Virus record (IMG/VR): IMGVR_UViG_3300031649_000001 | Location: 47,262-111,261 of that record | From: a virus | Strand: one strand, 5' to 3' | Length of the DNA stretch: 64,000 bases | The notes under the pieces: generated by a model | The model's database searches: none | What the model was told of the DNA's origin: nothing | Seen by the model: the letters and a program-made list of their open reading frames with translations, nothing else | Shown here: in pieces, positions 5,501 through 63,326 of the stretch | Numbering within the stretch: the stretch's first letter is position 1 | Layout of the letters: each line of letters opens with the position of its first letter | Position numbers and translations under genes: made by a program

Positions 5501-8500
5501 GTGGCTCTGGCCGAGTACGACGACGTGTACTGGTTTCCGGACGGGACGCTCGCCCGGAACATTCCCGCGCGCGTCTTCCCGGAGCACTCCAACGAGTTCG
5601 CGACCCTCTACACCGACGCCACCGGCGACACCGAACTCCCCAATCCCCTCAACACCGACAACGACGGCCGCCTCACCTTCTGGGCCGAAGCGGGGATCTA
5701 CTGGATCCACATCGACAGCGAGTCCATCCGCGTCGGCGTCGGCACCAGCGAAGAGGGCGTGACCCCGGCGCAGGTCGCGGCGGCCATCGCCGCACACAAC
5801 GCCGACCACACCGACGTCCACGGCATCGTGGAGACGGCGGACCTGGCCACGGATGCGGAGCTGGCCGCACACGCGGCCGACACCACGAGCGTGCACGGCA
5901 TCGCCAACACGGCGCTGCTGGAGACGCAGGCCGGGGCACAGGCGAAGGCGGACGCGGCTCAGGCGGCGGCCGAGGCGAACGCCAGCGCCGACGCCGCCGG
6001 GCAGATCTCCGAGGCGCGCGGCGAGCTGGAGGAGGACATCGCCGCCGGGGACGCCGCGCAGGCTGCGGCGCTGGCCGCGCACGCCGCCGACACGACCAAC
6101 GTCCACGGCATCCCCGACACGGCCAACATCCCCACGAACGCCGAGTTCGAGCAGGTCCAGGCGGACCTCGCCGCGCACGAGGCCGACACCACGGCGGTGC
6201 ACGGCATCGCGAACACGGCCGACCTGGCCACCGACGCGGATGTGGCTGCGGTGGCGTCGGGCCTGGCCGATCACGTCGCCGACACGACCGGCGTCCACGG
6301 CATCGCCAACACCGCCGACCTGCTCACGACCGCGGACCTTGAGCAGTACGCCACCGACGCGGAGCTGGCCGCTCACGTCGCCGACACCACGGCGGTCCAC
6401 GGCATCACGGACACGGCCGACCTGGTCACGAGCGCGGATCTGGCCGGGCTGGCGACGGACGCCGAGGTGGCCGCCGTCCAGGGCAACCTGGACGCGCACG
6501 CCGCCGACACCACGGCGGTGCACGGCATCGCGAACACGGCCGACCTGGTGACGGATGCGGATCTGGCCGGGCTGGCGACTGAGGCCGCCCTGGAAGCCCA
6601 CGCCAGCGCCACCACCGACGTCCACGGCATCACCGACACCGGCGACCTGCTGACCCAGGCCGACCTGGACGAGTACGCCACGGACGCGGAGCTGGCCGCG
6701 CACGCGGCCGACACCACGGCGGTCCACGGCATCGCGAACACCGCCGACCTGGAGACGGCCACCGGCGCCCAGACCAAGGCCGACGCCGCCCGTGACGCGG
6801 CCATCGCCGACGCCGCCACCAAGTACCTCAACCGGCTCACCGGCGGCACCGTGACCGGCGACGTGATCATTGAGGGGGCGAACCTCACCGTCCAGAAGCC
6901 GGACGACGCGGGCGGCTACCGGCTGCGCACCACCGGCTCCTCCAACGACCTGGACGTCTCCCTCGAAACGTTCGTGTCGTTCTTCGCGAACCCGGACTTC
7001 TCGGGGACGCAGACGCCGCTCATGCGGTGGGAGGCCGCCGGGCCTCACCTCATCGGGCACGTGCAGATCGGCTCCAACCCCTACGACTCCGTCTTCGACT
7101 TCGACGCTGCTGCCGCCGCCGCCACCTTCAACGGGGACCTCACCGTCACCGGCGCCCTGAACGCCAACGGGGTGACGGACTGGATCAACGCCAGGACCCA
7201 CGGCGCCACCGGCGATGACGTCACCGACGACATCGACGCCCTGGAAGACGCCGTGCAGGCGTGCCCGCTGGGCGGTGTGGTCTACCTGCCCAACGGCCGC
7301 TACCGCACCTCGCGGACGCTGTACGTGCCGCCCGGGGTGACGGTGATGATGCCCCACGCCAACCTGATGGCGGTGCCGGGCATCACCGACCCGCCGTGCT
7401 CCATCAAGCCGCTCGATGAGTTCACCGGCCCGGCCGCCATCGGGTTCCTCAACCAGACGGCAGGCGGCTACCCGGCCATCCCCGCAGAACACCGCCTGGT
7501 CAACGTGATGATCGACGGCTCCGCCTACACGGCCGCCGCGCTCGACGGCATCCAGGCGAAGGGGAACATCCAGAACATCTGCATGTACGGCTGCACCATC
7601 CGCTACATGTCCGGCAATGGCATCTACACCGACATCGGCGCCGACAGCGTGTTCCCGTACTCGTGGCGCCTCTACAGGGTCATGATCGACAACTGCGACG
7701 GGCACGGCTTCGCGTTCAACGTGATGACCGACATCACCCTTTTCGACTGCCAGTCCATCGGCAACGGGGCGAACGGCTTCTACCTGCGCAACCTGGCCAA
7801 CTCGCAGATGTCGCTGTGCCGGGCGGAGTGGAACGGCAACCACGGCTACGCCTTCACCGGCGACTGGGGCGAAGGCGCCGGTGCGGGGGCGCTGGTGGCG
7901 TCGGGCTGTTCCACGGACCGCAACGGCTGGGACGGCATCCACGTGGATGCGACCGGCACCACACCCATCGTGTTCAACGGGCTCATGCTGAGGCGCGACG
8001 GCCGCAACAACGGCGCCGGGGGCGGCGGGTACGCGGCCCTGGCCACCTACGCGGCCACCATCCCCATCGTGGTGGACGGACTGACCGTCTACCCGGGCAC
8101 CGACGACAACGGCACCGGCACCTCATCCCCGGAGATGGGCGTCAACCTCCAGGCCGTCACCGAGGCGTTCACCCTCGACAATGCATATATCCACGTAGCC
8201 ACGACCCCGCTCAACGACGACGGCACCAACCTCCGCGTCCAGCTCGGCCCGAACATCATCCGCGCCACCGGCCCCACCACCGCCCCCGTAGTGGCGCCGG
8301 TGTCGGCGTGGAACTGGGCCGGGACGGCGACCGCCCAGCAGGAGGCCGCCGCCGACAACGTCCTGGAGACGCTGATCGCGGGCGAGGACTTCCCCCGCTC
8401 GGTCATCCGCGCGGATGGAATGGTGGTGTTCGGCGGCGGCACCGTCGCGCCGGACACACCGGGCTGGTACCGCGAGATCGGGGGCAACCTCAAGACCGAC

Positions 8501-8839
8501 TCCTACGTGAACATGAACTCCGGCGGCCAGTCCGGCGGCCCCTTCACCTCCTGGGCGGCCGACCCCAAGGCGCTGCGGGCGGGCGCCGGAGGCGGCGGAC
8601 TGTCCGTCGCCGAGGGCGCCAACGGCCGCCTGGGGGTTGCCACGCTGGTGGCCGGGACCGTGACCGTGGCCAACACCAGCATCACCGCCACCAGCCGGAT
8701 CTTCATCACGCGGTCCGCCGCCGGGGGCACCCTCGGCCACCTCACCGTCACCAAGAACGCGGGCGTGGGCTTCACCGTCACCAGCTCCAGCCCGACCGAG
8801 ACATCCACCGTGGAGTGGTTCGCGGTGGAGCCGTCGTAG
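5501..8839 (+). CDS. Tail fibre / tailspike with HGI repeats and parallel beta-helix domain
   Basis: 1112 residues; GTG at 5501 with TGGAGG upstream. Residues 1-85 form an N-terminal attachment domain (YWFPDGTLARNIPARVF, LTFWAEAGIYWIHID). Residues about 95-420 contain nine degenerate copies of H-A-A-D-T-T-x-V-H-G-I-x-N-T-A-D-L separated by Ala/Asp-rich stretches, likely a trimeric fibrous shaft. From about 560 a right-handed beta-helix resembles pectate-lyase-like tailspikes (GATGDDVTDDIDAL, GGVVYLPNGRYRTS, NGFYLRN). The last 150 residues are beta-rich. The beta-helix suggests binding or cleavage of a host polysaccharide; no catalytic residues were assigned. Confidence 0.85.
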   Translation: MALAEYDDVYWFPDGTLARNIPARVFPEHSNEFATLYTDATGDTELPNPLNTDNDGRLTFWAEAGIYWIHIDSESIRVGVGTSEEGVTPAQVAAAIAAHNADHTDVHGIVETADLATDAELAAHAADTTSVHGIANTALLETQAGAQAKADAAQAAAEANASADAAGQISEARGELEEDIAAGDAAQAAALAAHAADTTNVHGIPDTANIPTNAEFEQVQADLAAHEADTTAVHGIANTADLATDADVAAVASGLADHVADTTGVHGIANTADLLTTADLEQYATDAELAAHVADTTAVHGITDTADLVTSADLAGLATDAEVAAVQGNLDAHAADTTAVHGIANTADLVTDADLAGLATEAALEAHASATTDVHGITDTGDLLTQADLDEYATDAELAAHAADTTAVHGIANTADLETATGAQTKADAARDAAIADAATKYLNRLTGGTVTGDVIIEGANLTVQKPDDAGGYRLRTTGSSNDLDVSLETFVSFFANPDFSGTQTPLMRWEAAGPHLIGHVQIGSNPYDSVFDFDAAAAAATFNGDLTVTGALNANGVTDWINARTHGATGDDVTDDIDALEDAVQACPLGGVVYLPNGRYRTSRTLYVPPGVTVMMPHANLMAVPGITDPPCSIKPLDEFTGPAAIGFLNQTAGGYPAIPAEHRLVNVMIDGSAYTAAALDGIQAKGNIQNICMYGCTIRYMSGNGIYTDIGADSVFPYSWRLYRVMIDNCDGHGFAFNVMTDITLFDCQSIGNGANGFYLRNLANSQMSLCRAEWNGNHGYAFTGDWGEGAGAGALVASGCSTDRNGWDGIHVDATGTTPIVFNGLMLRRDGRNNGAGGGGYAALATYAATIPIVVDGLTVYPGTDDNGTGTSSPEMGVNLQAVTEAFTLDNAYIHVATTPLNDDGTNLRVQLGPNIIRATGPTTAPVVAPVSAWNWAGTATAQQEAAADNVLETLIAGEDFPRSVIRADGMVVFGGGTVAPDTPGWYREIGGNLKTDSYVNMNSGGQSGGPFTSWAADPKALRAGAGGGGLSVAEGANGRLGVATLVAGTVTVANTSITATSRIFITRSAAGGTLGHLTVTKNAGVGFTVTSSSPTETSTVEWFAVEPS

Positions 8840-11668: not shown

Positions 11669-12910
11669 ATGGCCGCCAAGACCACCGCCACCGTCGAGAC
11701 CACCATCACCACCCTGACCGGCGAGGCCTTCGCGACCGTCGGCTGGTCCACCAGCCGCACCAAGGTAGACGAGGTCCGCGAGTACAAGTGGACCGCCCCC
11801 CACGCCCTCAAGGTGTGGCGCTTCGCCCGCATGGACGACCAGTGGTTCGGCTTCTGCTGGAAGTGCGACGGCGCCGGGAACATCGGCTACGGCCCCGACA
11901 ACGGCGTCTGCTGGGAGTGCTCCGGCCACGGCCTCCGCGACTACTGGACGGTCGGCGAGGAGTTCGACACCAAGCTCCGCAACATCGAGCGCTCCGTGAA
12001 GGCCGAGTCCACCAAGCAGGCCAAGGCTATCGCCGCCCGCCACGCCGAGATCGCCGAGTGGCGCGCCGCCAACCCCGAGCTGATCACCTGGGCCGAGGCC
12101 AAGACCCCCACCGGCACCGAGCCCCACGAGGTCCTGACCGGAGAGACCCAGGACGTGTACGACGGCTACACCCCCAACGTCCAGTACGCCATCCGCTGCG
12201 TCCGCTACGGCACCGCCCTGGACCGCAAGCTCACCGGCCTGCTCCGCAAGGTGATCGCCGACGAGGCCAACGCCCCGGCCGTCAAGCCCAGCCGCCACGC
12301 CGGTGCGGAGGGCGACCGCCCGACCATCACCGGCAAGGTCGTCATGTGGCGCAACAACGAGGAGGACGGCTACCTCACCGTCAAGGTGGAGGGCGAGGGC
12401 GCCGACACCGGCATCACCTTCTTCACCAACACCAGTTCCGCCTCCGCCTACGAGCTGGAGGAGGGCGACCTGGTGATGGTCAAGGCGACCATTAAGCGCA
12501 ACGAGGTGTACCGGGTGACCGGCCAGAAGTCGGACCGCGTCGGCCGCGCCGTCTTCACCAAGGTCGACGAGATCCCCGCCCCCGCCGCGCCGGTCGCCAC
12601 GGTCGCTGAGACGGCCCCGCAGGCGCCGGTTGAGACCCCGGCCCCGGCCGCCCCCGCCAGCGAGCCCACGACCCCGCAGAGCGACGCCACGCCCGTCCGC
12701 AAGACCGGCCGCCGCGCAGCCCAGGGCGCGTCCTCCGTGGACGGCTGGGAGCTGCTCTACGACAAGCCCAAGGCGGGCGCCGAGGTGGTCCGCAAGGACG
12801 GCCGCTACGCCCTCGCCTGCAAGACCCACCGCACCCTCCACCACCTGGACCGCCTCTCCGACGAGGGCAAGGTCCGCAAGGCGGGCGGCTGGTGCACCGA
12901 GTGCCACTGA
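11669..12910 (+). CDS. WELLYDKP-family protein with DnaJ-like zinc centre and OB-like domain
   Basis: 413 residues; ATG at 11669 behind GAGGAG. Residues 60-90 hold two CxxCxGxG units (CWKCDGAG at 63-70, CWECSGHG at 81-88), as in DnaJ-type zinc centres. Residues about 265-325 are beta-rich with an OB-like look (TITGKVVMWRNNEEDGYL ... LVMVKATIKRN). A Pro/Ala linker leads to the shared C-terminal domain (GWELLYDKP at about 359-367, C-x2-H, ending WCTECH). It is the largest of seven paralogues and follows its own promoter and leader hairpin. Zinc binding and nucleic-acid binding are inferred; function is unknown. Confidence 0.8.
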   Translation: MAAKTTATVETTITTLTGEAFATVGWSTSRTKVDEVREYKWTAPHALKVWRFARMDDQWFGFCWKCDGAGNIGYGPDNGVCWECSGHGLRDYWTVGEEFDTKLRNIERSVKAESTKQAKAIAARHAEIAEWRAANPELITWAEAKTPTGTEPHEVLTGETQDVYDGYTPNVQYAIRCVRYGTALDRKLTGLLRKVIADEANAPAVKPSRHAGAEGDRPTITGKVVMWRNNEEDGYLTVKVEGEGADTGITFFTNTSSASAYELEEGDLVMVKATIKRNEVYRVTGQKSDRVGRAVFTKVDEIPAPAAPVATVAETAPQAPVETPAPAAPASEPTTPQSDATPVRKTGRRAAQGASSVDGWELLYDKPKAGAEVVRKDGRYALACKTHRTLHHLDRLSDEGKVRKAGGWCTECH

Positions 12911-46529: not shown

Positions 46530-47404
46530 CACTTGTCGGTGCAGCTCGGGCACCACACGGAGCGGCGGCCACCACGCAGGCCGCGCTCCTGGACCAGCCG
46601 CGTGAGCGGGTGGGCGTGCTTGTGGGTGGTGCAGATGAGGGCGTACTTGCCGTCCTTGCGGCCGACCTGGGCCTTCTGCTTGGGCTTGTCGTACAGCAGC
46701 TCCCAGCCCTCCACGGCCGCGTCGCCCTGGGCCTCGCGGCGGGTGCCGCCGCCGGTGCCGGTGCGGGGGGCCCGTGCGGGCTTGTCGCGCTCCACGGCCT
46801 TGGCCGCCTCGGCCGCCTTGGGGGCGTCGGCGCAGCCCTTGCCGTGCTCGCCGGTCTCGACGATCTTCTCCACGGAGCAGCCGCACGCGGCCTGGCCCCG
46901 GTGGGCGTCGGCGGCCGGGGCGGCGTCCTCGTCGCTGTTCTCGTCCTCCTGGTCGGGGGCGTTCTCCAGGGCGGCCGTGATGGCGGCGGCCTGGGCGACG
47001 GTGGCGGTGGCCTCGTCGATCACGGCGTTCAGGAGGGCGTCAAACTCCTCGCCGCTCTCGCCGTCCTCGTCGTCGGCTGCCCGCTCGGCGACGGCGTTCG
47101 CCTCGGCCACGGCCGCGTCCTCGGCGTCGCGCCCGGCCTGCTCGCTGGCCAGGGTCTCCGTCACGGCGGCGGCCGACAGCGTGGTCTCGTCGTCGGCGGC
47201 CGGGGCGGCGGGCTCCGGGGCGGTCGCGACCGGCGCGCCCTGGGCGGTGTAGGTGAGCTTGCTGGTGGCCTCGGTGCGGACCTCGACATCCACGCGGTCC
47301 AGCTTGGCGCGGGCGTCGGCCTCGGTCTTGGCGCTCTTGAGGTTCGAGATGCGCTTGGGCTCGGGGCTGGAGGGGGTGGCGGCGACGATGTAGGCGGTGG
47401 CCAT
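46529..47404 (-). CDS. WELLYDKP-family protein with CGC/TGxHxxxC motif
   Basis: 291 residues; ATG at 47404 (reverse), GAGGAGCCC upstream. N-terminal 60 residues (KTEADARAKLDRVDVEV, LTYTAQGAPVA) match the head of the 61945 paralogue. A long acidic Ala/Glu stretch follows. ACGCSVEKIVETGEHGKGC near 170-188 is a possible metal site that also occurs at the end of the RecT-like protein. The C terminus is the shared domain (WELLYDKP at 234, YALICTTHKHAHPL, WCPSC). Own promoter, leader and terminator. Role unknown. Confidence 0.8.
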   Translation of the reverse strand: MATAYIVAATPSSPEPKRISNLKSAKTEADARAKLDRVDVEVRTEATSKLTYTAQGAPVATAPEPAAPAADDETTLSAAAVTETLASEQAGRDAEDAAVAEANAVAERAADDEDGESGEEFDALLNAVIDEATATVAQAAAITAALENAPDQEDENSDEDAAPAADAHRGQAACGCSVEKIVETGEHGKGCADAPKAAEAAKAVERDKPARAPRTGTGGGTRREAQGDAAVEGWELLYDKPKQKAQVGRKDGKYALICTTHKHAHPLTRLVQERGLRGGRRSVWCPSCTDK

Positions 47405-55779: not shown

Positions 55780-55820
55780 GATGGCCCCCTGGGCTCCGGC
55801 GTGGTGGGGGCTCCTGCCCC

Positions 55821-55877
55821 CCGGTGTGACACCAGTATTGCATACGCAGTTCAGGTTACGCAAACCCCGTGTCTCAT
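55821..55877 (-). promoter_or_regulatory. Symmetrical-family promoter, GGTGTCACACC form
   Basis: Reverse strand: TGAGACACGGGG arm, -35 TTGCGT (55863-55858), 18-bp spacer, -10 AATACT (55839-55834), GGTGTCACACC. Leader hairpin GGGGGGC/GCCCCC follows. Confidence 0.75.
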
Positions 55878-55879
55878 CA

Positions 55880-55891
55880 ATCCACGGGGAT
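55880..55891. promoter_or_regulatory. ATCC box next to a promoter
   Basis: ATCCACGGGGAT, four bases upstream of the GAGACAC arm of the leftward promoter at 55821. Confidence 0.6.
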
Positions 55892-55895
55892 GGAC

Positions 55896-55922
55896 CGGGC
55901 GGGGGCCGCCCGCCCGGCCGGG
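55896..55922 (-). terminator. GC palindrome after the 56184-55927 gene
   Basis: CGGGCGG pairs with CCGCCCG inside CGGGCGGGGGCCGCCCGCCC. It is directly 3' of the leftward stop. Confidence 0.55.
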
Positions 55923-55926
55923 AGGT

Positions 55927-56184
55927 TCAGGCGTTCCGGAAGGCGGGCTGGGCCCTGAACTCAAGGCTGATGTGAGCCACGTCCCAGTTCGCGAGGGCCC
56001 ACTCCTGGAGGGGCTTGAGCGGGCCCTCGGTGTCGCACACGAGGTAGGCCGGGGTGCCTCCGAAGTAGTCGATCATCTCGGAGCCGGGCGCGCTGTAGTC
56101 GACCGGGACAACGTCCGGGAGGGCGGTACCGAAGGCGGCCTGCTGGTTGGGGGCGGTGCGGACTTCCAGGACCCAGCGGTTCAT
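55927..56184 (-). CDS. Hypothetical protein
   Basis: 85 residues; ATG at 56184 (reverse), AAGGAGAAGGCC upstream. Alpha/beta (RWVLEVRTAPNQQAAFGTAL, MIDYFGGTPAYLVCDTEG, LQEWALANWDVAHISLEF). Stand-alone unit with promoter, leader hairpin and palindrome terminator. It has no WELLYDKP domain. Unknown. Confidence 0.75.
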   Translation of the reverse strand: MNRWVLEVRTAPNQQAAFGTALPDVVPVDYSAPGSEMIDYFGGTPAYLVCDTEGPLKPLQEWALANWDVAHISLEFRAQPAFRNA

Positions 56185-56220
56185 GGCCTTCTCCTTGGGG
56201 CGTGGTGGGGGCGGCGCCCC

Positions 56221-56276
56221 GGTGTGACATCAGTATTGCATACGCGGTTCAGGTTATGCAAACCTCGTGTCTCATC
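56221..56276 (-). promoter_or_regulatory. Symmetrical-family promoter, GGTGTCACACC-like form
   Basis: Reverse strand: TGAGACACGAGG arm, -35 TTGCAT (56261-56256), 18-bp spacer, -10 AATACT (56237-56232), GATGTCACACC. Confidence 0.75.
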
Positions 56277-56277
56277 A

Positions 56278-56289
56278 ATCCACGGGGAT
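56278..56289. promoter_or_regulatory. ATCC box next to a promoter
   Basis: ATCCACGGGGAT beside the arm of the leftward promoter at 56221, same arrangement as at 55880. Confidence 0.6.
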
Positions 56290-56307
56290 GAGGCCGGGCG
56301 GACAGGA

Positions 56308-56330
56308 GGCCGCCCGCCCGGCCGGGCGGC
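56308..56330 (-). terminator. GC palindrome after the 56656-56330 gene
   Basis: GCCGCCCG and CGGGCGGC face each other around CCCGGC, directly after the leftward stop. Confidence 0.55.
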
Positions 56331-56656
56331 TACGCGGGCCAGGCGAAGCCGGAGTTCCCGACGACCGCCAGGTTGAGGACCGACCCGAAGAACGACGCCC
56401 GCCGGAAGTCGGCGAAGGCGAAGTGCAGGTGCTGGAGCCGGGCGTCGATCACCGTGGCGTGGCGGCTGATGGACTGCGGCGAGCCCGCGTTCAGCACGTC
56501 CAGCAGGGCCTGGGCGTCCGGAGCGTCGTAGAAGGCGACGTTGACGGAGCCGTCGGCCTGGCTGAGCCAGACGTCCACGTAGCCGGGGAGCTGCCGGGCG
56601 AGGTGGCTGGTGGCCTGCTGGGGGGTGAGGGTCGGGTCGTTGAGCGAGCTGAGCAT
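56330..56656 (-). CDS. Hypothetical protein
   Basis: 108 residues; ATG at 56656 (reverse), AAGGAGAGCCGTC upstream. Alpha/beta ferredoxin-like pattern (TSHLARQLPGYVDVWLSQ, GSVNVAFYDAPDAQALLDV, LQHLHFAFADFRRASFF). Second gene behind the promoter at 57040. Unknown. Confidence 0.75.
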   Translation of the reverse strand: MLSSLNDPTLTPQQATSHLARQLPGYVDVWLSQADGSVNVAFYDAPDAQALLDVLNAGSPQSISRHATVIDARLQHLHFAFADFRRASFFGSVLNLAVVGNSGFAWPA

Positions 56657-56669
56657 GACGGCTCTCCTT

Positions 56670-56681
56670 GTCTGCGTGGAT
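56670..56681. promoter_or_regulatory. ATCC box before a leftward gene
   Basis: GTCTGCGTGGAT (reverse ATCCACGCAGAC), 14 bases upstream of the start at 56656. Confidence 0.5.
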
Positions 56682-56708
56682 CGTGGTGGGGCTCGCGCCC
56701 CGGGAGGG

Positions 56709-56741
56709 GGGCCGCCCGCCCGGCCGGGCGGGCGGCGGGCG
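56709..56741 (-). terminator. GC palindrome after the 57004-56744 gene
   Basis: GGCCGCCCGCCCGG faces CCGGGCGGGCGGC. Directly 3' of the leftward stop; partial readthrough would be needed for the next gene. Confidence 0.55.
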
Positions 56742-56743
56742 GG

Positions 56744-57004
56744 TCAGGCGTCCAGGCCCTGACCCCAGGCGGCGACGATGCGGTGGTACTCGGCGCGGGC
56801 GGCCTGGCTGTCGCGGCCGACGCGGACGGCGAGCGCGGCGATGGCCTCGCGGTCCACATCCTGGCCCTTGACCGCGCGGCGCAGGTCGATGGCCACCCGC
56901 TGGTCGATGCTGACCAGACGGCCCGCCAGCGCCTTCACGTCGGCGGCGTCGCCCAGCTCGGCCACGATCTGAAGCTCTTCGATGAGTTCGGCGGTGGACA
57001 TCAT
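56744..57004 (-). CDS. Hypothetical helical protein
   Basis: 86 residues; ATG at 57004 (reverse), AGGAGCCCGCC upstream; a second ATG follows. Helical (ELIEELQIVAELGDAADVKA, RAVKGQDVDREAIAALAVRV). Preceded by promoter and leader hairpin. Unknown. Confidence 0.75.
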   Translation of the reverse strand: MMSTAELIEELQIVAELGDAADVKALAGRLVSIDQRVAIDLRRAVKGQDVDREAIAALAVRVGRDSQAARAEYHRIVAAWGQGLDA

Positions 57005-57039
57005 GGCGGGCTCCTGGGCGTGGTGGGGGCGGCGCCCCC

Positions 57040-57095
57040 GGTGTGACACCAGTATTGCATACGCCATTCGGCGAACGCAAATCTCGTGTCACACG
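57040..57095 (-). promoter_or_regulatory. Symmetrical-family promoter, GGTGTCACACC form
   Basis: Reverse strand: GTGACACGAGATT arm, -35 TTGCGT (57080-57075), 18-bp spacer, -10 AATACT (57056-57051), GGTGTCACACC, then leader hairpin GGGGGC-GCC-GCCCCC. Confidence 0.8.
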
Positions 57096-57123
57096 GCCGG
57101 GCGGCCGGTCGGCCGCCCGGCCG
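57094..57123 (-). terminator. Strong GC palindrome after the Nudix-like gene
   Basis: CGGCCGGGCGGCCG (57094-57107) pairs perfectly with CGGCCGCCCGGCCG (57110-57123) around GT. Directly 3' of the leftward stop at 57138. Confidence 0.7.
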
Positions 57124-57137
57124 TGGAGCCGACGGGG

Positions 57138-57626
57138 TCAGTGGTCGGCCAGTACCTCCACGTCACCGCCGGACAGTGCCCGCAGCGCGGCGTGGACGCG
57201 GGCCGCCGTGAAGGTCATCAGCAGCTCCTCCATGTCCCCGGGGTCCACCCAGCGCACCCCGGCCACGTCCGGCCCTAGCGTGAACTCAGGGTCCTTGTCC
57301 CACACTCCGCAGTCGTAGAGCAGGTTGAGACCTTCCCGGGAGTAGTGGGTGCGCCACTGCTTGCCGTACATGTGGTGCACCGCCAGCAGGCGGCCGGGCT
57401 CCAGCGTGGCGCCCGTCTTGCGGCGGGCCGCACGCACCAGGCCGTCGGTCAGCGGCTCGTTCTCCTCCACGCACCCGCCCGGCAGGTAGAACGGGACGGG
57501 GTGCTCCTCCGGCGGCTGCTTCTTCTCCACGAACAGCACGTGACCGTCCGTGTTGCGCACGATTCCCAGGGCTCCGACGCGGCGCTCCGGCGCGTGGATG
57601 AAATGGTCGTGCTTCGCTTCTGGCAT
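57138..57626 (-). CDS. Nudix-fold protein with degenerate catalytic box
   Basis: 162 residues; ATG at 57626 (reverse) behind AGAGGAGTTCC. VGALGIVRNTDGHVLFVEKK and FYLPGGCVEENEPLT are classic Nudix strands and loop. The box starts correctly (Gly51-x5-Glu57-x7-Arg65) but the R-E-U-x-E-E core reads RAARRKTGA, so all three metal-binding glutamates are replaced (Ala66, Arg69, Lys70). It is probably a binding or regulatory Nudix domain, or one with another metal site. Ligand could be a nucleotide-linked signal; unknown. Confidence 0.75.
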   Translation of the reverse strand: MPEAKHDHFIHAPERRVGALGIVRNTDGHVLFVEKKQPPEEHPVPFYLPGGCVEENEPLTDGLVRAARRKTGATLEPGRLLAVHHMYGKQWRTHYSREGLNLLYDCGVWDKDPEFTLGPDVAGVRWVDPGDMEELLMTFTAARVHAALRALSGGDVEVLADH

Positions 57627-57653
57627 GGAACTCCTCTTCGCCCAAGTGGACTG

Positions 57654-57677
57654 CGGGCGGCCGGAGTTGGCCGCCCG
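57654..57677 (-). other. Hairpin in the Nudix leader
   Basis: CGGGCGGCC (57654-57662) pairs with GGCCGCCCG (57669-57677) around GGAGTT. On the leftward message it lies about 30 bases before the start; possible attenuator. Confidence 0.5.
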
Positions 57678-57694
57678 GGAACCAGCCTGGTGCC

Positions 57695-57729
57695 AGACCA
57701 TAAACACCTGTTGAACGAACGGGCGTTCG
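57695..57729 (-). promoter_or_regulatory. Possible promoter/operator of the Nudix gene
   Basis: On the reverse strand TATGGT (about 57702-57697) may be a -10. CGAACGGGCGTTCG at 57716-57729 is a 14-bp palindrome overlapping the expected -35. It differs from the symmetrical family, so this gene may be controlled separately. Confidence 0.4.
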
Positions 57730-57769
57730 CCGCACGGGCGGGCGGCCGGGTGACCGCCCGCCCGTGCGG
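57730..57769 (-). terminator. Very strong GC terminator after the 57774 gene
   Basis: CCGCACGGGCGGGCGG (57730-57745) pairs perfectly with CCGCCCGCCCGTGCGG (57754-57769), a 16-bp stem. It lies just past the leftward stop. Confidence 0.8.
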
Positions 57770-57773
57770 GAGT

Positions 57774-58463
57774 TCAGCAGGAGGGGCACCAGCCGCCCGC
57801 CTTGCGGACCGGGCCCTCGTCGCTCAGGCGGGCCAGTCCGTGGGCGTGGCCGTGGGTCTTGCAGATCAGGGCGTACTCGGGCTTGCCGTCCACGTACCGG
57901 CGGCCGACCTCGGCGCCCGCCTTCGGCTTGTCGTAGAGCAGGTCCCAGCCGGTGGCGCTGGAGGCTCCCAGGGCCTCCCTGGCGGCCTTGCGGGGCGCGG
58001 CCGGGGCGGCGGGCGCCGGGGCCGGGGCGGCGGCCGGGGCGAGGGTCAGGTCGCTGACGATGTAGTCGGCGCCGCCGGACGCGGCCAGGTGGGCGAACTC
58101 GGCGTCGTACTGGACGGAGACGACCCAGCCGACCGGGGTGAGCGCGGGCTCGTTGGTGGTGGTGCCGGTGGCGTTCTCGGGGGTGGTGACGCGGGAGGCG
58201 GCGGGCAGCTCCGGGGTGATGGGGGCGGCGGCCGGGGCGTCGTACTTGCCCTCCACGAAGGTGGCGAAGACCTCGTCCCAGTCGGCGCCGTCGATGGTGG
58301 AGCCGGAGAGGCGGGTCTTGTCGCCGAGGTACGCCTTGGCCATCTCCTCGTACTGCTGGCGGTCCTTGCCGAAGGTGAAGCCGACCGGCTCGAAGGAGTT
58401 GGGGGCGTCCTTGAAGAGGTTGCGGCAGACGGCGGACGTGGCGGCGGCGGTGGAGAGGGCCAT
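57774..58463 (-). CDS. WELLYDKP-family protein (short form, internal start)
   Basis: 229 residues; ATG at 58463 (reverse) behind AAGGAGCCC. N-terminal 150 residues are alpha/beta (SAVCRNLFKDAPNSFEPVG, DWDEVFATFVEGKY). The shared domain begins at WDLLYDKP (173) and ends WCPSC. It has its own promoter and leader hairpin at 58510. The same frame is open upstream to 58802 with no stop, so a 342-residue form (see next entry) is also possible. Unknown role. Confidence 0.75.
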   Translation of the reverse strand: MALSTAAATSAVCRNLFKDAPNSFEPVGFTFGKDRQQYEEMAKAYLGDKTRLSGSTIDGADWDEVFATFVEGKYDAPAAAPITPELPAASRVTTPENATGTTTNEPALTPVGWVVSVQYDAEFAHLAASGGADYIVSDLTLAPAAAPAPAPAAPAAPRKAAREALGASSATGWDLLYDKPKAGAEVGRRYVDGKPEYALICKTHGHAHGLARLSDEGPVRKAGGWCPSC

Positions 58464-58802
58464 CGTGGGCTCCTTCGGGTCGGTCGTGGTGGGGGGCTCC
58501 GCGCCCCCCGGTGTGACACCAGTATTGCATACACCGTTCGGCGTGCGCAAACCTTGTGTCTCATCAATCCACGTGGATCGGACCGGGGAGGCAGGCGTAC
58601 CGTACGCGGCCTCGTGGTCCACGCGGTCCTGGAGCGCCTGGCAGCACACGTCCTGGGCCTCGGGCCCCATGCCGGGGCACTCCCGCCGGGCGCAGCAGGT
58701 CGTGTCCCCGCCGTCGTCGGTGATCGGGTTCGTCTCGCCGCACACCGAGCAGTGCGCCATCTGCGCCAGGTCGACGGCGCGCGGGTAGCGCTGGTGGCTC
58801 AT
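57774..58802 (-). CDS. Long form: zinc-head fused in frame to the WELLYDKP protein
   Basis: 342 residues if read from ATG 58802 (reverse; AGAGAGGACCCCG upstream) to the same stop. The first 75 residues (AHCSVCGETNPITDDGGD, TCCARRECPG, DVCCQALQDR) match the head of the 60932 paralogue. The promoter at 58510 is read through as protein (STWIDETQGLRTPNGV). Compared with the 60932 protein, this looks like a lost stop codon joining two genes, or a nested gene with two starts. Promoter at 58825 would drive it. Confidence 0.5.
   Translation of the reverse strand: MSHQRYPRAVDLAQMAHCSVCGETNPITDDGGDTTCCARRECPGMGPEAQDVCCQALQDRVDHEAAYGTPASPVRSTWIDETQGLRTPNGVCNTGVTPGGAEPPTTTDPKEPTMALSTAAATSAVCRNLFKDAPNSFEPVGFTFGKDRQQYEEMAKAYLGDKTRLSGSTIDGADWDEVFATFVEGKYDAPAAAPITPELPAASRVTTPENATGTTTNEPALTPVGWVVSVQYDAEFAHLAASGGADYIVSDLTLAPAAAPAPAPAAPAAPRKAAREALGASSATGWDLLYDKPKAGAEVGRRYVDGKPEYALICKTHGHAHGLARLSDEGPVRKAGGWCPSC
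58510..58565 (-). promoter_or_regulatory. Symmetrical-family promoter inside a longer open frame
   Basis: Reverse strand: GAGACACAAGG arm, -35 TTGCGC (58550-58545), 18-bp spacer, -10 AATACT (58526-58521), GGTGTCACACC; leader hairpin GGGGGGC...GCCCCCC follows. It lies within the 58802-57774 open frame. Confidence 0.75.
58567..58578. promoter_or_regulatory. ATCC box next to a promoter, perfect palindrome
   Basis: ATCCACGTGGAT beside the arm of the leftward promoter at 58510; also inside the long open frame. Confidence 0.65.
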
Positions 58803-58824
58803 CGGGGTCCTCTCTGCCGGTGCC

Positions 58825-58876
58825 GTGTGACACCAGACTATCGGTCGGTAGTGGGGTGAGCACACCCCGTGTCTCA
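58825..58876 (-). promoter_or_regulatory. Symmetrical-family promoter for the zinc-head frame
   Basis: Reverse strand: TGAGACACGGGG arm, -35 GTGCTC (58863-58858), 17-bp spacer, -10 TAGTCT (58840-58835), GGTGTCACAC. The -35 is weak. Confidence 0.6.
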
Positions 58877-58966
58877 TTCGTGAGCGGCCGGAGGGACGTC
58901 CAGGAGCCATGAGTGCGCAGCTCGGGGGCGGTGCCGCTCACAGACCGCTCAGCGATCCGACGTGAA

Positions 58967-58996
58967 CGGCCGCCCGCCCGGCCGGGCGGGCGGCCG
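58967..58996 (-). terminator. 30-base GC palindrome after the 59271-59002 gene
   Basis: CGGCCGCCCGCCCGG (58967-58981) and its complement to 58996 form a full palindrome directly 3' of the leftward stop. Confidence 0.65.
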
Positions 58997-59001
58997 GGCG
59001 G

Positions 59002-59271
59002 CTACCGGCGGGGGAACAGGGCCGCGATGATCTCGTCCTCGCGGGCCGGGGGCGCGAACTCACCGGCGCGGGCGGCGACCATGTCCGCCTGGAGGGCGTG
59101 CTGGCGGACCCACGCCTTGGGCAGGCGGGCGCCGCACAGGATCAGGTCGGCGAGGATGCTCCAGTCGCCGGAGGCCTCCCGCAGGGCGGCGGCCTGGGCC
59201 TTGGTGGTGGCGGCCTGGGCGCGGCGGGCGGCGTCGGCGGCGGCGCGGATGGCGATGAAGGCTGCGTTCAC
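59002..59271 (-). CDS. Hypothetical Ala-rich helical protein
   Basis: 89 residues; ATG at 59271 (reverse), CAGGAGGACCACG upstream. Helical and Ala-rich (AIRAAADAARRAQAATTKA, ADLILCGARLPKAWVRQHA). Stand-alone unit with symmetrical promoter, leader hairpin and palindrome terminator. Unknown. Confidence 0.75.
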   Translation of the reverse strand: MNAAFIAIRAAADAARRAQAATTKAQAAALREASGDWSILADLILCGARLPKAWVRQHALQADMVAARAGEFAPPAREDEIIAALFPRR

Positions 59272-59315
59272 GTGGTCCTCCTGGACTGGAGCGTGGTGGG
59301 GGCGGCGCCCCCCTC

Positions 59316-59367
59316 ATGTGACATGAGATTAGCATGGACGCTCGCGTCATGCAAACTTCGTGTCTCC
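59316..59367 (-). promoter_or_regulatory. Symmetrical-family promoter (leftward)
   Basis: Reverse strand: GGAGACACGAAG arm, -35 TTGCAT (59354-59349), 17-bp spacer, -10 TAATCT (59331-59326), CATGTCACATG, then GGGGGGC-GCC-GCCCCC hairpin. Confidence 0.75.
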
Positions 59368-59424
59368 TCTATACGGGGGAGGACGGGAGTTCACGGAACG
59401 GCCCTGATCAGGGGACTGAACTCT

Positions 59425-59436
59425 ATCCCCGTGGAT
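59425..59436. promoter_or_regulatory. ATCC box next to a promoter
   Basis: ATCCCCGTGGAT, followed by TGAT and then the GAGACAC arm at 59441; the same spacing recurs at 60170 and 61832. Confidence 0.65.
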
Positions 59437-59440
59437 TGAT

Positions 59441-59494
59441 GAGACACGGAGTTTGCATTCAGCGAACCGGTATGCAATACTGGTGTCACACCGG
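59441..59494 (+). promoter_or_regulatory. Symmetrical-family promoter for a WELLYDKP gene
   Basis: GAGACACGGAG arm, -35 TTGCAT (59453-59458), 17-bp spacer, -10 AATACT (59476-59481), GGTGTCACACC; then hairpin GGGGGGC-AAACA-GCCCCCC. Confidence 0.8.
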
Positions 59495-59531
59495 GGGGCA
59501 AACAGCCCCCCACCACACCGAGGAGCTCACC

Positions 59532-60017
59532 ATGGCTGCCAAGACCTCCGCCTCCATCGCCCCCTCCACCTACACCGCCCTGACGGTCTCCTCCCGCACC
59601 GCCAAGGTCACGCACCTCTGGGTCGGCACCGGCAACCTGTGCGGCGCCGAGTTCACCCAGGCCCCGATGGTCCGCCAGCTCCAGGCGAACTCCATCTGCA
59701 AGTCCTGCGCCGCCCTCCAGGACGTCTTCGACGCCGCCCAGGAGGCGGCCGAGGCCGACCGCGAGCGGATCATGAACACCGACCGCGCCCGCCGCCTCAC
59801 CGACGGCCAGTCCGCCGTCACCGGCTGGGAACTCCTCTACGACAAGCCGAGCATCGCCGCTCAGGTCGGCCGCCGCGACAAGAAGTACGCGCTCATCTGC
59901 ACCGACCACCGCTACGCCCGGCCGCTGGCCAAGCTGACGGACGAGCGCCTGGTCCGCAAGGCGGGCAAGGCTGCCTGGTGCGAGGGCTGCGCCGTCGAGG
60001 GCACCGACGAGGGCTGA
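59532..60017 (+). CDS. WELLYDKP-family protein
   Basis: 161 residues; ATG at 59532 with GAGGAGCTCACC upstream. The head (TYTALTVSSRTAKVTHLW, NLCGAEFTQAP, SICKSCAALQD) has three Cys and may bind metal. The shared domain starts at WELLYDKP (99) and continues YALICTDHRYARPL to WCEGC, with a short acidic tail absent in paralogues. Second His of the H.H.H run is replaced. Own promoter, leader and terminator. Unknown. Confidence 0.8.
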   Translation: MAAKTSASIAPSTYTALTVSSRTAKVTHLWVGTGNLCGAEFTQAPMVRQLQANSICKSCAALQDVFDAAQEAAEADRERIMNTDRARRLTDGQSAVTGWELLYDKPSIAAQVGRRDKKYALICTDHRYARPLAKLTDERLVRKAGKAAWCEGCAVEGTDEG

Positions 60018-60032
60018 GCCCCCCGGGGCGTA

Positions 60033-60064
60033 CCGCCCGCCCGGCCACCCGGCCGGGCGGGCGG
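60033..60064 (+). terminator. GC terminator after the 59532 gene
   Basis: CCGCCCGCCCGGCC (60033-60046) pairs perfectly with GGCCGGGCGGGCGG (60051-60064) around ACCC. Confidence 0.75.
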
Positions 60065-60169
60065 CCGTGTGTCCGGGGGTCGGTCGCTTCGGTCGCTGAG
60101 CGCCGTTCTGAGGAGTTCACGCAGGGCCAGCGGCACTCACGGCTCCGGCTCCTGCCTCCGGCCCTCCCT

Positions 60170-60181
60170 GATCCCCGTGGA
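60170..60181. promoter_or_regulatory. ATCC box next to a promoter
   Basis: ATCCCCGTGGAT, then TGAT and the GAGACACGGGG arm; identical arrangement to 59425 and 61832. Confidence 0.65.
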
Positions 60182-60184
60182 TTG

Positions 60185-60239
60185 ATGAGACACGGGGTTT
60201 GCAAATGGTGAACCGGTATGCAATACTGGTGTCACACCG
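60185..60239 (+). promoter_or_regulatory. Symmetrical-family promoter for a WELLYDKP gene
   Basis: TGAGACACGGGG arm, -35 TTGCAA (60198-60203), 17-bp spacer, -10 AATACT (60221-60226), GGTGTCACACC; hairpin GGGGGGC-AGGA-GCCCCCC follows. Confidence 0.8.
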
Positions 60240-60282
60240 GGGGGCAGGAGCCCCCCACCACCGCCGAACCGAGGAGCTCCAA

Positions 60283-60795
60283 ATGGCCGCCACCTTCACC
60301 CTCAAGTACGGTCGCACCTCGGTCCACGTGGCTGGCGCCGAGATCCGCACCCAGGGCACGGACTTCGACTACGCGAAGAGCGCCTGCCCGGTGCTGTCCC
60401 GCTCGGTCCGCTTCTGCGAGCGCGCCGCCCAGGCCACCACGGCGGCCGAGGTCATCGAGGAGGCCAAGAAGCTGGCCGTCGCCACCAGCAACAAGCTCTG
60501 CAAGAAGTGCCTGGAGGCTCTGGAGGCCATGGCCGCCACGGAGGCCGCCGAGGCTGAGGCCGCCGCCGCTCCGGCCGGGCGCACCCCCCGCGCCGCCCAG
60601 GGCGTCGCCAGCGTCGCCGGGTGGGAGCTGCTCTACGACAAGCCGAAGCAGGGTGCCGAGGTCGGCCGCCGGTCCGTTGAGGGCCGCCCCCAGTACGCGC
60701 TGATCTGCAAGGCTCACGGCCACGCCCACGAGCTGCCCCGGCTGACCGCCGAGCGGGCGCTCCGGTCCAATGGCGGATGGTGCCCCTCCTGCTGA
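60283..60795 (+). CDS. WELLYDKP-family protein
   Basis: 170 residues; ATG at 60283 behind GAGGAGCTCCAA. Head: KYGRTSVHVAGAEIRTQG, a helix (TTAAEVIEEAKKLAVATS) and NKLCKKCLEAL, a CxxC knuckle; KSACPVLSRSVRFC adds two Cys. The shared domain begins at WELLYDKP (114): YALICKAHGHAHEL, then GGWCPSC at the very end. One of the three most typical members. Own promoter, leader hairpin and palindrome terminator. Unknown role. Confidence 0.8.
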   Translation: MAATFTLKYGRTSVHVAGAEIRTQGTDFDYAKSACPVLSRSVRFCERAAQATTAAEVIEEAKKLAVATSNKLCKKCLEALEAMAATEAAEAEAAAAPAGRTPRAAQGVASVAGWELLYDKPKQGAEVGRRSVEGRPQYALICKAHGHAHELPRLTAERALRSNGGWCPSC

Positions 60796-60800
60796 CGCCC

Positions 60801-60830
60801 CGGGCGGGCGGCCGGTCGGCCGCCCGCCCG
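60801..60830 (+). terminator. GC terminator after the 60283 gene
   Basis: CGGGCGGGCGGCCG (60801-60814) pairs perfectly with CGGCCGCCCGCCCG (60817-60830). Confidence 0.75.
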
Positions 60831-60835
60831 GCCGG

Positions 60836-60891
60836 GTGACACGGAGTTTGCATTCCGCGAACGGGGATGCTAATCTGGTGTCACACCGGGG
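60836..60891 (+). promoter_or_regulatory. Symmetrical-family promoter for a WELLYDKP gene
   Basis: GTGACACGGAG arm, -35 TTGCAT (60848-60853), 17-bp spacer, -10 TAATCT (60871-60876), GGTGTCACACC; hairpin GGGGGGC-AGGA-GCCCCCC. No ATCC box precedes this copy. Confidence 0.8.
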
Positions 60892-60931
60892 GGCAGGAGC
60901 CCCCCACCACCTCCAGCCGAAGGAGCCCACC

Positions 60932-61675
60932 ATGGCCCGCCTCCTCTCCGCCGCCGCCCTCCGCGAGACCGTTCACTGCGCCGGTTGCGGCGACCTGAAC
61001 CCCGCCGACGACGGCGACGGCTACACCGTCTGCTGCAACAAGCGCGTCTGCACCGGGTGGGGCTGGAGCAAGACCGAGGGCTGCTGCGGCGAGACGGCCG
61101 CCCGCCTGGCCGACGAGCGCCACCGCGCCTCCCGCAACCCGAACCTGGACCGCCACATGGCGGAGGTCGCCGCGAAGCTGGAGGCCGCCGACGCGAAGGG
61201 TGTCCACACCCACGCGGCCGTCCGGGTGGGCGTGGGCGCCACGCAGTCCGGGCCGGTCCTGGCCTGGCGCTACGACTCCGAGGTGGAGGGCTACGGCGAC
61301 ATCACCCTCGTGAACTACAAGGGCGAGGAGCTGTACGCGCCGCTGACGGACGTCATGCTGCACGACATCCGGCCGTGCTGGGACCGCTGCAAGCACGCCC
61401 CCGCCGTCCCGGCGCCGGTGGTGGAGGTCAAGGAGATGACGGCCGCCCGCCCGGCCGCCCGTACCACCCGCGCCGCCCTGGGCGCCGCCTCCGCCCCCGG
61501 CTGGGAGCTGCTCTACGACAAGCCGAAGGCGGGCGCCGAGGTCGGCCGCCGGGCCAAGGGTGAGAAGTCCGAGTACGCGCTGATCTGCAAGGCTCACGGC
61601 CACGTCCACCCGCTGGCCCGCCTGAGCGACGAGGGCCAGGTCCGCAAGGCGGGCGGCTGGTGCCCGTCCTGCTGA
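60932..61675 (+). CDS. WELLYDKP-family protein with Cys-rich zinc head
   Basis: 247 residues; ATG at 60932 behind AAGGAGCCCACC. Head: TVHCAGCGDLNPADDGDGYT, VCCNKRVCTG, EGCCGETAARLADER, about eight Cys, matching the head of the 58802 frame. Middle alpha/beta part (KGVHTHAAVRVGVGATQSGP, DITLVNYKGEELY). The shared domain begins at WELLYDKP (191): YALICKAHGHVHPL, RKAGGWCPSC. The intact head-plus-tail fusion supports the long-form reading at 58802. Unknown function; zinc binding inferred. Confidence 0.8.
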   Translation: MARLLSAAALRETVHCAGCGDLNPADDGDGYTVCCNKRVCTGWGWSKTEGCCGETAARLADERHRASRNPNLDRHMAEVAAKLEAADAKGVHTHAAVRVGVGATQSGPVLAWRYDSEVEGYGDITLVNYKGEELYAPLTDVMLHDIRPCWDRCKHAPAVPAPVVEVKEMTAARPAARTTRAALGAASAPGWELLYDKPKAGAEVGRRAKGEKSEYALICKAHGHVHPLARLSDEGQVRKAGGWCPSC

Positions 61676-61687
61676 GTTCCCGCCCCA

Positions 61688-61723
61688 CCGCCCGCCCGTC
61701 TGGCCGCCCGGCCGGGCGGGCGG
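61688..61723 (+). terminator. GC terminator after the 60932 gene
   Basis: CCGCCCGCCCG (61688-61698) pairs with CGGGCGGGCGG (61713-61723), with GGCCGCCCGGCC in the loop. Confidence 0.65.
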
Positions 61724-61831
61724 CCGTGTGTCCATATCTGTTCAGGAGCCGGGGTCGCTGTGCTACTGCGTGAGGAGTTCGCGCAGGTCGGCGGGCACTC
61801 ACGGCTCCGCTCCGCACTCCGGGCCTGCCTG

Positions 61832-61843
61832 ATCCCCGTGGAT
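61832..61843. promoter_or_regulatory. ATCC box next to a promoter
   Basis: ATCCCCGTGGAT, then TGAT and the GAGACACGGGG arm. Confidence 0.65.
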
Positions 61844-61846
61844 TGA

Positions 61847-61902
61847 TGAGACACGGGGTTTGCATTCGCCGAACGGCGTATGCAATACTGGTGTCACACC
61901 GG
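61847..61902 (+). promoter_or_regulatory. Symmetrical-family promoter for a WELLYDKP gene
   Basis: GAGACACGGGG arm, -35 TTGCAT (61860-61865), 18-bp spacer, -10 AATACT (61884-61889), GGTGTCACACC; hairpin GGGGGC-AAGA-GCCCCC. Confidence 0.8.
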
Positions 61903-61944
61903 GGGGCAAGAGCCCCCACCACCTCCCTCCCGAAGGAGCCCACC

Positions 61945-62499
61945 ATGGCCGCCACCTCTTACACCGTCGCCGCTGCCGCCGAGTTCGCCGCCAAGCCCTA
62001 CGCCAACCTGGCCGCCGCCAAGCGCGAGGCCAACCGCCGGGCGCAGGCCACCGGGCTGGAGGTCACCGTCACCACCGTCGCCACCGGCCGCCTGAGCTAC
62101 ACCGCCGTCGCCGAGCCGCTGGTCATCGCGGACCAGGCCGAGGTGGAGGCCGCTCTCGCCGCCGAGGACCGCGCCGACGCCCTGACCGGCGTGGCCGCCG
62201 TCCTGTCCGCGATGGTCGTCAAGACCGCCGCCCGCATCGAGGCCGCTCCCAACGGCCCGGCCCCCCGCCGCCCCCGCAAGGCCGTCACCGGCCGCCGGGC
62301 GGGCCTGGGCGAGTCGGCCGCCAGGGGCTGGGAGCTGCTGTACGACAAGCCGCGCCAGGCCGCTCAGGTCGGCCGCCGCGACGGCCAGTACGCCCTGATC
62401 TGCGTGAACACGGGCACCGCCTACGCGCTCGGCAAGCTGGTGGACGAGCGGGGCGCCCGCAAGGCTGGCGGCTGGTGCGCCGCCGGGTGCAAGCACTGA
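61945..62499 (+). CDS. WELLYDKP-family protein, divergent tail
   Basis: 184 residues; ATG at 61945 behind AAGGAGCCCACC. The head (NLAAAKREANRRAQATGLEV, GRLSYTAVAEPLVI) is homologous to the head of the 47404-46529 paralogue. The shared domain starts at WELLYDKP (129), but the C-x2-H-x-H-x-H run is replaced by CVNTGTAYAL and the end reads CAAGCKH, so its metal site should differ or be lost. Own promoter, leader and terminator. Unknown. Confidence 0.8.
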   Translation: MAATSYTVAAAAEFAAKPYANLAAAKREANRRAQATGLEVTVTTVATGRLSYTAVAEPLVIADQAEVEAALAAEDRADALTGVAAVLSAMVVKTAARIEAAPNGPAPRRPRKAVTGRRAGLGESAARGWELLYDKPRQAAQVGRRDGQYALICVNTGTAYALGKLVDERGARKAGGWCAAGCKH

Positions 62500-63080: not shown

Positions 63081-63326
63081 TCACGGCTCAGCTCCGCCCT
63101 CCTGGGGCTGCCCGGGGCGGTACATGACCGTGGGCCCGGTGCCGCGCGCCCGCACGATCAGCCCCTCGTCCGCGAGCGCGCCCAGGACCAGGGAGGCCTG
63201 GGACCGGTTGAGCCCGTGGATCTGCATGAGGTCGGCCAGCGCGGGCGCCCGGGAGCCGGTGGGCCAGTCGCCCCGGCGGATGGACCGGCGCAGCCGGGCC
63301 AGGACGTCGGCCGCGTCCGGCGTCAC
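63081..63326 (-). CDS. Small GntR-like winged-helix protein
   Basis: 81 residues; GTG at 63326 (reverse) overlapping the stop of the HAD-like gene (GTGA). RRSIRRGDWPTGSRAPALAD, LNRSQASLVLGALADEGLIV and RARGTGPTVMYRPG match the helix-turn-helix and wing of GntR-type regulators, with no effector domain. It is a candidate repressor for the phage's repeated operators, or an early regulator. No binding site can be assigned from sequence. Confidence 0.7.
   Translation of the reverse strand: MTPDAADVLARLRRSIRRGDWPTGSRAPALADLMQIHGLNRSQASLVLGALADEGLIVRARGTGPTVMYRPGQPQEGGAEP

What the first reader, a model, noticed from the sequence alone, without database searches (positions are those of the whole stretch)
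57774..58802. Lost stop codon or nested gene: zinc-head frame fused to a WELLYDKP gene across a promoter
The frame starting at 58802 reads without a stop through the promoter at 58510 into the 58463-57774 gene. Its head is similar to the head of the 60932 protein, which is naturally fused to the same tail. So either an ancestral head-tail protein acquired an internal promoter, or two units merged. The promoter-operator would be translated as a linker in the long form.
Basis: seen in the sequence. Interest (0 to 1): 0.7.

Follow-up and report, generated by a model that had tools for sequence, protein, structure and literature searches.

The report
Phage gene nested in longer gene
Two related, previously undescribed phages of Streptomyces-like bacteria each carry one continuous reading frame in which a complete internal promoter lies between a cysteine-rich head and a shared tail, so the same DNA can probably yield a long protein (with the promoter translated as a floppy linker) and a short one lacking the head; it is real and conserved, but it resembles nested gene pairs already known.

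Summary
The minus-strand frame 58802-57774 is open for 342 codons and runs through a full promoter cassette (two operator arms, -10, leader hairpin, Shine-Dalgarno, ATG 58463). It is not a sequencing error: a second phage (IMG/VR 3300042007_000202) has the same head-linker-tail in one frame (67% protein identity), despite a 45-nt and a 3-nt indel and 26 substitutions in 117 aligned linker bases. Openness alone is weak evidence: 10 of 15 such cassettes in the two phages are open in the downstream gene's frame. The real point is that the head, which looks like genuine coding sequence (dN/dS 0.38, GC3 0.97), has no stop of its own in either phage, so translating it must yield the fusion. The linker shows no protein-level constraint (dN/dS 0.83, GC3 0.70, predicted disordered). 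Best model: a nested in-frame pair, long form from an upstream variant promoter (P1), short form from the internal promoter (P2), like Tn5 transposase/inhibitor. Merger of two complete units is somewhat favoured over insertion of a promoter. The tail is an orphan small Cys/His domain, seven copies per phage; in Streptomyces a relative precedes an HNH nuclease resembling type IV restriction enzymes. No expression data exist.

The parts
57774..58802 (-). long form, 342 aa: head, linker, middle, tail in one open frame
   Evidence: translation without stop; same frame intact in L009:5992-7023, 67% identity
57774..58463 (-). short form, 229 aa, starting at internal ATG 58463
   Evidence: own SD and a complete upstream cassette; start and SD conserved in L009
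58584..58802 (-). Cys-rich head (residues 1-73), probably zinc-binding
   Evidence: 82% aa identity, dN/dS 0.38, GC3 0.97; paralogous to head of 60932 protein
58464..58583 (-). linker (residues 74-113) = promoter P2, leader and SD read as protein
   Evidence: GC3 0.70, dN/dS 0.83; pLDDT about 30-42 in the full-length model
58567..58578 (-). palindrome ATCCACGTGGAT at the upstream edge of cassette P2
   Evidence: a similar element precedes many of the other cassettes
58547..58563 (-). P2 left operator arm TGAGACACAAGGTTTGC, containing most of the -35-like TTGCGC (58550-58545)
   Evidence: matches the cassette family
58511..58529 (-). P2 right operator arm TGCAATACTGGTGTCACAC with -10 AATACT (58526-58521)
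   Evidence: exact consensus
58491..58509 (-). P2 leader hairpin GGGGGGC-GCGGA-GCCCCCC, no T run
   Evidence: fold -19.2 kcal/mol, z -1.2; no terminator-like site found
58470..58476 (-). Shine-Dalgarno GAAGGAG of the short form
   Evidence: read directly; present in L009
58825..58876 (-). P1: variant copy of the promoter-operator upstream of the head (-10 TAGTCT 58840-58835)
   Evidence: motif scores 20.9 / 21.1, at or below the low end of the other copies; counterpart in L009 weaker still
58808..58814 (-). Shine-Dalgarno GAGAGGA of the long form
   Evidence: read directly; conserved in L009
57777..57986 (-). tail domain (WELLYDKP family; WDLLYDKP here), residues 273-342
   Evidence: 7 copies in each phage; AlphaFold2 mean pLDDT 91.5, four strands then a helix
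60932..61675 (+). paralogue: head + unrelated middle + tail, promoter only upstream of its start

Best explanation
The locus is a nested, in-frame gene pair. A head unit (variant promoter P1, SD, ATG 58802) runs without a stop into a standard tail-domain gene that keeps its own complete cassette (operator-promoter P2, leader hairpin, SD, ATG 58463). Transcription from P1 should give a 342-aa protein in which cassette P2 is translated as a roughly 40-aa disordered linker; transcription from P2 should give a 229-aa protein without the head. P1 and P2 both carry the phage's paired operator arms, so both should be controlled by the same regulator, and regulator bound at P2 would also lie in the path of transcription from P1. 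Both products share the tail, so they probably bind the same partner, the short form being the default product (in the window's phage) and the long form a minor version with an extra zinc module. Shown: the open frame, its conservation, head coding constraint, the full cassette. Inferred: use of both promoters, both products, zinc binding, and the relation between the products. A merger of two units before the two phages split is inferred from the start signals present on both units.
For: Open frame in two phages, with linker indels of 45 and 3 nt, both multiples of three. Head dN/dS 0.38 and GC3 0.97 against linker 0.83 and 0.70. P2 in the window within the range of the other copies and with a perfect right arm (24.6 / 36.7; others 21-31 and 20-36). 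Starts and SDs conserved. Linker predicted disordered, tail confident. Precedent for a long and a shortened product from two promoters at one gene: Tn5 transposase and its inhibitor, with the inhibitor transcript the more abundant (PMC4265352).
Against: No transcript or protein data. Only two genomes carry it, so the head dN/dS interval is wide (0.17-0.89). P2 in the relative is weaker (18.2 / 29.6) and both P1 copies score low, that of the relative very low (14.0 / 12.0), so either product might be minor or absent. With 26 substitutions in the linker the chance of staying open is 0.51-0.66, so frame conservation by itself is modest evidence.
Confidence: 0.62

Rival explanations
1. Only the long protein matters, at least in the relative, and P2 is decaying: the gene is on its way to being a single head-tail protein like 60932, with the old promoter left as a spacer.
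For: P2 of the relative is degraded in both arms compared with the other copies; the 60932 gene shows that a head-tail protein without an internal promoter exists.
Against: In the window P2 is in the normal range with a perfect right arm; SD and ATG of the short form are conserved in both phages; P2 of the relative still has TTG in the -35 and the A2 and T6 of the -10.
Confidence: 0.18
2. Only the short protein is made; the head stretch is an untranslated or decaying remnant and the open frame is a by-product of 71% GC.
For: Long open frames through cassettes are common here (10 of 15); P1 scores low.
Against: Head has low dN/dS, near-total GC3, an SD, conserved cysteines and a paralogue in a normal gene.
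Confidence: 0.12
3. History: an ancestral head-tail protein acquired an internal promoter by in-frame insertion of a cassette. This concerns origin and is compatible with the two-product mechanism.
For: Head and tail are also fused in 60932.
Against: The middles of the two proteins are unrelated; what follows the cassette starts like other tail genes (SD, ATG, Ala); an insertion would also need a length divisible by three.
Confidence: 0.25
4. Sequencing or assembly error hides a stop between two separate genes.
For: Metagenome-derived record.
Against: An independently assembled relative with different linker sequence and length has the same open frame.
Confidence: 0.02

Closest known systems
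Tn5/IS50 transposase and inhibitor (two promoters, nested products)
   Same: A long product and a shortened product are expressed from two promoters at one gene; the inhibitor transcript is the more abundant (PMC4265352).
   Different: Here the two starts are about 340 nt apart, the internal promoter is a full operator cassette of a phage-wide family, and antagonism is untested.
Other nested in-frame pairs: pIGRK RepR/RepR', phage T4 gene 49
   Same: A second protein from an internal in-frame start with a different function (PMC6854812; T4 gene 49 is cited there, that paper was not readable).
   Different: pIGRK has no internal promoter; here a complete one is present and would be translated as a linker.
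Streptomyces HNH proteins with an N-terminal relative of the tail domain (WP_266914621.1)
   Same: The GW(D/E)-xx-Y-x-KP ... C-x2-H ... WC-x2-C domain.
   Different: There it is N-terminal to an HNH nuclease whose HNH part matches PADLOC type IV restriction models. The phage proteins carry the domain C-terminally and have no recognised nuclease.
Cluster A mycobacteriophage operators and stoperators
   Same: Short regulator sites repeated across a phage genome (PMC9283540 abstract).
   Different: Here two inward-facing arms frame a promoter; the regulator is unknown and roadblock activity untested.

Membership tests
Nested in-frame gene pair with internal promoter (Tn5 Tnp/Inh type) | one reading frame holding an internal start in the same frame | tested here: met
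   ATG 58463 in frame within 58802-57774; same in the relative
Nested in-frame gene pair with internal promoter (Tn5 Tnp/Inh type) | a promoter inside the long gene that drives the short one | tested here: inconclusive
   Good copy of the phage's own promoter family in the window, weaker in the relative; a generic sigma-70 scan found none; activity not testable
Nested in-frame gene pair with internal promoter (Tn5 Tnp/Inh type) | both proteins are made | not testable with these tools
   needs proteomics or reporter fusions
Nested in-frame gene pair with internal promoter (Tn5 Tnp/Inh type) | the short form inhibits the long form | not testable with these tools
   only the shared tail suggests it
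Type IV (modification-dependent) HNH restriction enzyme | HNH nuclease domain | tested here: not met
   P0001 has no Pfam or PADLOC match; only the Streptomyces relative P0002 has HNH
Known Pfam or PHROG family for head or tail | match at curated cut-off | tested here: not met
   no PDB fold match at E <= 0.001 for the tail

The most novel reading that the evidence does not exclude
Regulatory DNA used twice: one regulator's operator-promoter both drives a short protein and, when read from upstream, is translated as the linker of a longer isoform, so that regulator occupancy sets the ratio of two isoforms of a tail-domain protein family that engages, or mimics, host HNH-type modification-dependent nucleases.
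Probability: 0.07. Interest if true: 0.72.

Novelty: new variant of a known kind. Interest (0 to 1): 0.42.

Why it matters
If both products are made, a promoter-operator serves as coding sequence without apparent protein-level constraint, a simple route by which phages could turn neighbouring transcription units into isoform pairs. It also draws attention to an uncharacterised small domain with seven copies in each of two phages and a relative linked to HNH nucleases in Streptomyces, whose function can be tested directly.

Tried and rejected
Sequencing error: rejected by the relative. Frame openness as proof of coding: rejected as weak, base rate 10 of 15. Protein-level selection on the linker: not seen. 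Known families for head or tail: none in Pfam, PHROGs, PADLOC or PDB folds. Relatives in named phages: none for this protein, the tail or the 60932 protein. Further carriers of the fusion in IMG/VR: none beyond the one relative; tail profile found nothing in the genome-contig pattern scan. A palindrome (CGGCCGCGCGGCCG) in the extra 45 nt of the relative might be a terminator remnant, but such sequences are common at this GC content, so it was not used. One search read the loci of minus-strand genes in the wrong orientation; only its plus-strand rows were used, and starts of the others were redone.

Full report
Observation. The window is the right end of a 111,261-base virus record. On the minus strand the frame from ATG 58802 is open to 57774, 342 aa. 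Residues 1-73 form a cysteine-rich head, 74-113 a linker, 114-272 a middle, 273-342 a tail domain. The linker DNA is a full copy of the phage's repeated cassette: palindrome, left arm TGAGACACAAGGTTTGC, spacer, right arm TGCAATACTGGTGTCACAC, hairpin, SD and ATG 58463.

Is it more than chance? In 15 cassettes from the two phages, 10 are open in the downstream gene's frame through the whole cassette, and leader lengths are spread evenly over the three phases. Reading through a cassette is thus ordinary at 71% GC. The informative fact is that the head is a coding region without a stop. It is 82% identical in protein between the two phages, dN/dS is 0.38 (bootstrap 0.17-0.89), GC3 is 0.97; the linker has 0.83 and 0.70, the short form 0.69 and 0.99. 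If the head is translated, the fusion follows.

Relative. L009 (IMGVR_UViG_3300042007_000202) has the same architecture in one frame, 67% identical. Between the two, the linker has 26 substitutions in 117 aligned bases, a 45-nt and a 3-nt indel, both in phase. Simulated substitution alone leaves the frame open in 51-66% of cases, so this supports the frame but not strongly. It does exclude a sequencing error. Scans of IMG/VR with four queries found no third carrier of the fusion.

Promoters. A right-arm motif occurs with up to 3 mismatches 22 times in the window's phage and 28 times in the relative, none in the reversed control; because left arms are inverted near-copies, some matches are left arms. 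Two arms face each other: TGWGACACGAGATTTGC and the reverse complement of GCTAATCTCGTGTCACA. P2 in the window scores like the other copies; P2 of the relative is weaker; P1 of the window is a variant and P1 of the relative is poor. A generic sigma-70 scan found neither, so promoter function rests on repetition and position before genes, not on a consensus match.

Structure and family. The tail occurs seven times in each phage and once in a third contig, at the end of otherwise different proteins. AlphaFold2 predicts it confidently (mean pLDDT 91.5; four strands and a helix), with no convincing PDB match. In the full-length model the tail is confident and residues 73-144 are below 50. In 395 Streptomycetaceae-family genomes the profile matched 4. 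In L044, L048 and a Streptomyces plasmid protein the domain precedes an HNH motif (for L044 and L048 the motif was recognised by eye); the HNH part of the plasmid protein matches PADLOC mREase_IV at 4e-33. This suggests, but does not show, a role near modification-dependent nucleases. Metal binding by head and tail is inferred from cysteines and histidines only.

Mechanism. Best supported is a nested in-frame pair with a long form from P1 and a short form from P2 under one regulator. Tn5 transposase/inhibitor is the closest known working analogue; pIGRK RepR/RepR' is another nested pair, without an internal promoter. Whether the short form antagonises the long one is unknown.

History. Both units carry start signals and the middles of the 58802 and 60932 proteins are unrelated, so merger of two units is somewhat more likely than insertion of a promoter. 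The 60932 gene was not found in the relative: only one head copy was detected there.

Verdict. Real, conserved, probably functional as two products; a variant of a known kind. Interest 0.42.

Noticed in passing
window 55800-62000 and elsewhere; G000 and G001: A promoter-operator cassette with two inward-facing arms (TGWGACACGAGATTTGC ... GCTAATCTCGTGTCACA) overlapping -35 and -10; 22 and 28 motif matches in the two phages, none in the reversed control. Regulator unknown.
   Followed up: partly
window 63081-63326 (-): 81-aa GntR-type helix-turn-helix protein (Pfam GntR 5.9e-8), a candidate regulator of the cassettes.
   Followed up: no
window 11669-12907, 46532-47404, 57774-62499; G001 L032, L034, L036, L009: Seven different proteins per phage end in the same tail domain; their N-terminal parts differ.
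   Followed up: partly
L037:1003-1677; L044; L048: In Streptomyces and Embleya a relative of the tail domain sits N-terminal to an HNH nuclease resembling type IV restriction enzymes; in L046 and L047 it stands in a small protein.
   Followed up: partly
window 451-1833: Major capsid protein only about 35% identical to named phages but 90-91% to two IMG/VR contigs: an undescribed actinophage lineage.
   Followed up: partly
window 5501-8839: 1112-aa tail protein whose C-terminus matches a phage polysaccharide deacetylase family.
   Followed up: no
window 59002-59271 (-): Small gene with its own cassette between the head unit and the 59535 gene, not seen at this place in the relative.
   Followed up: no
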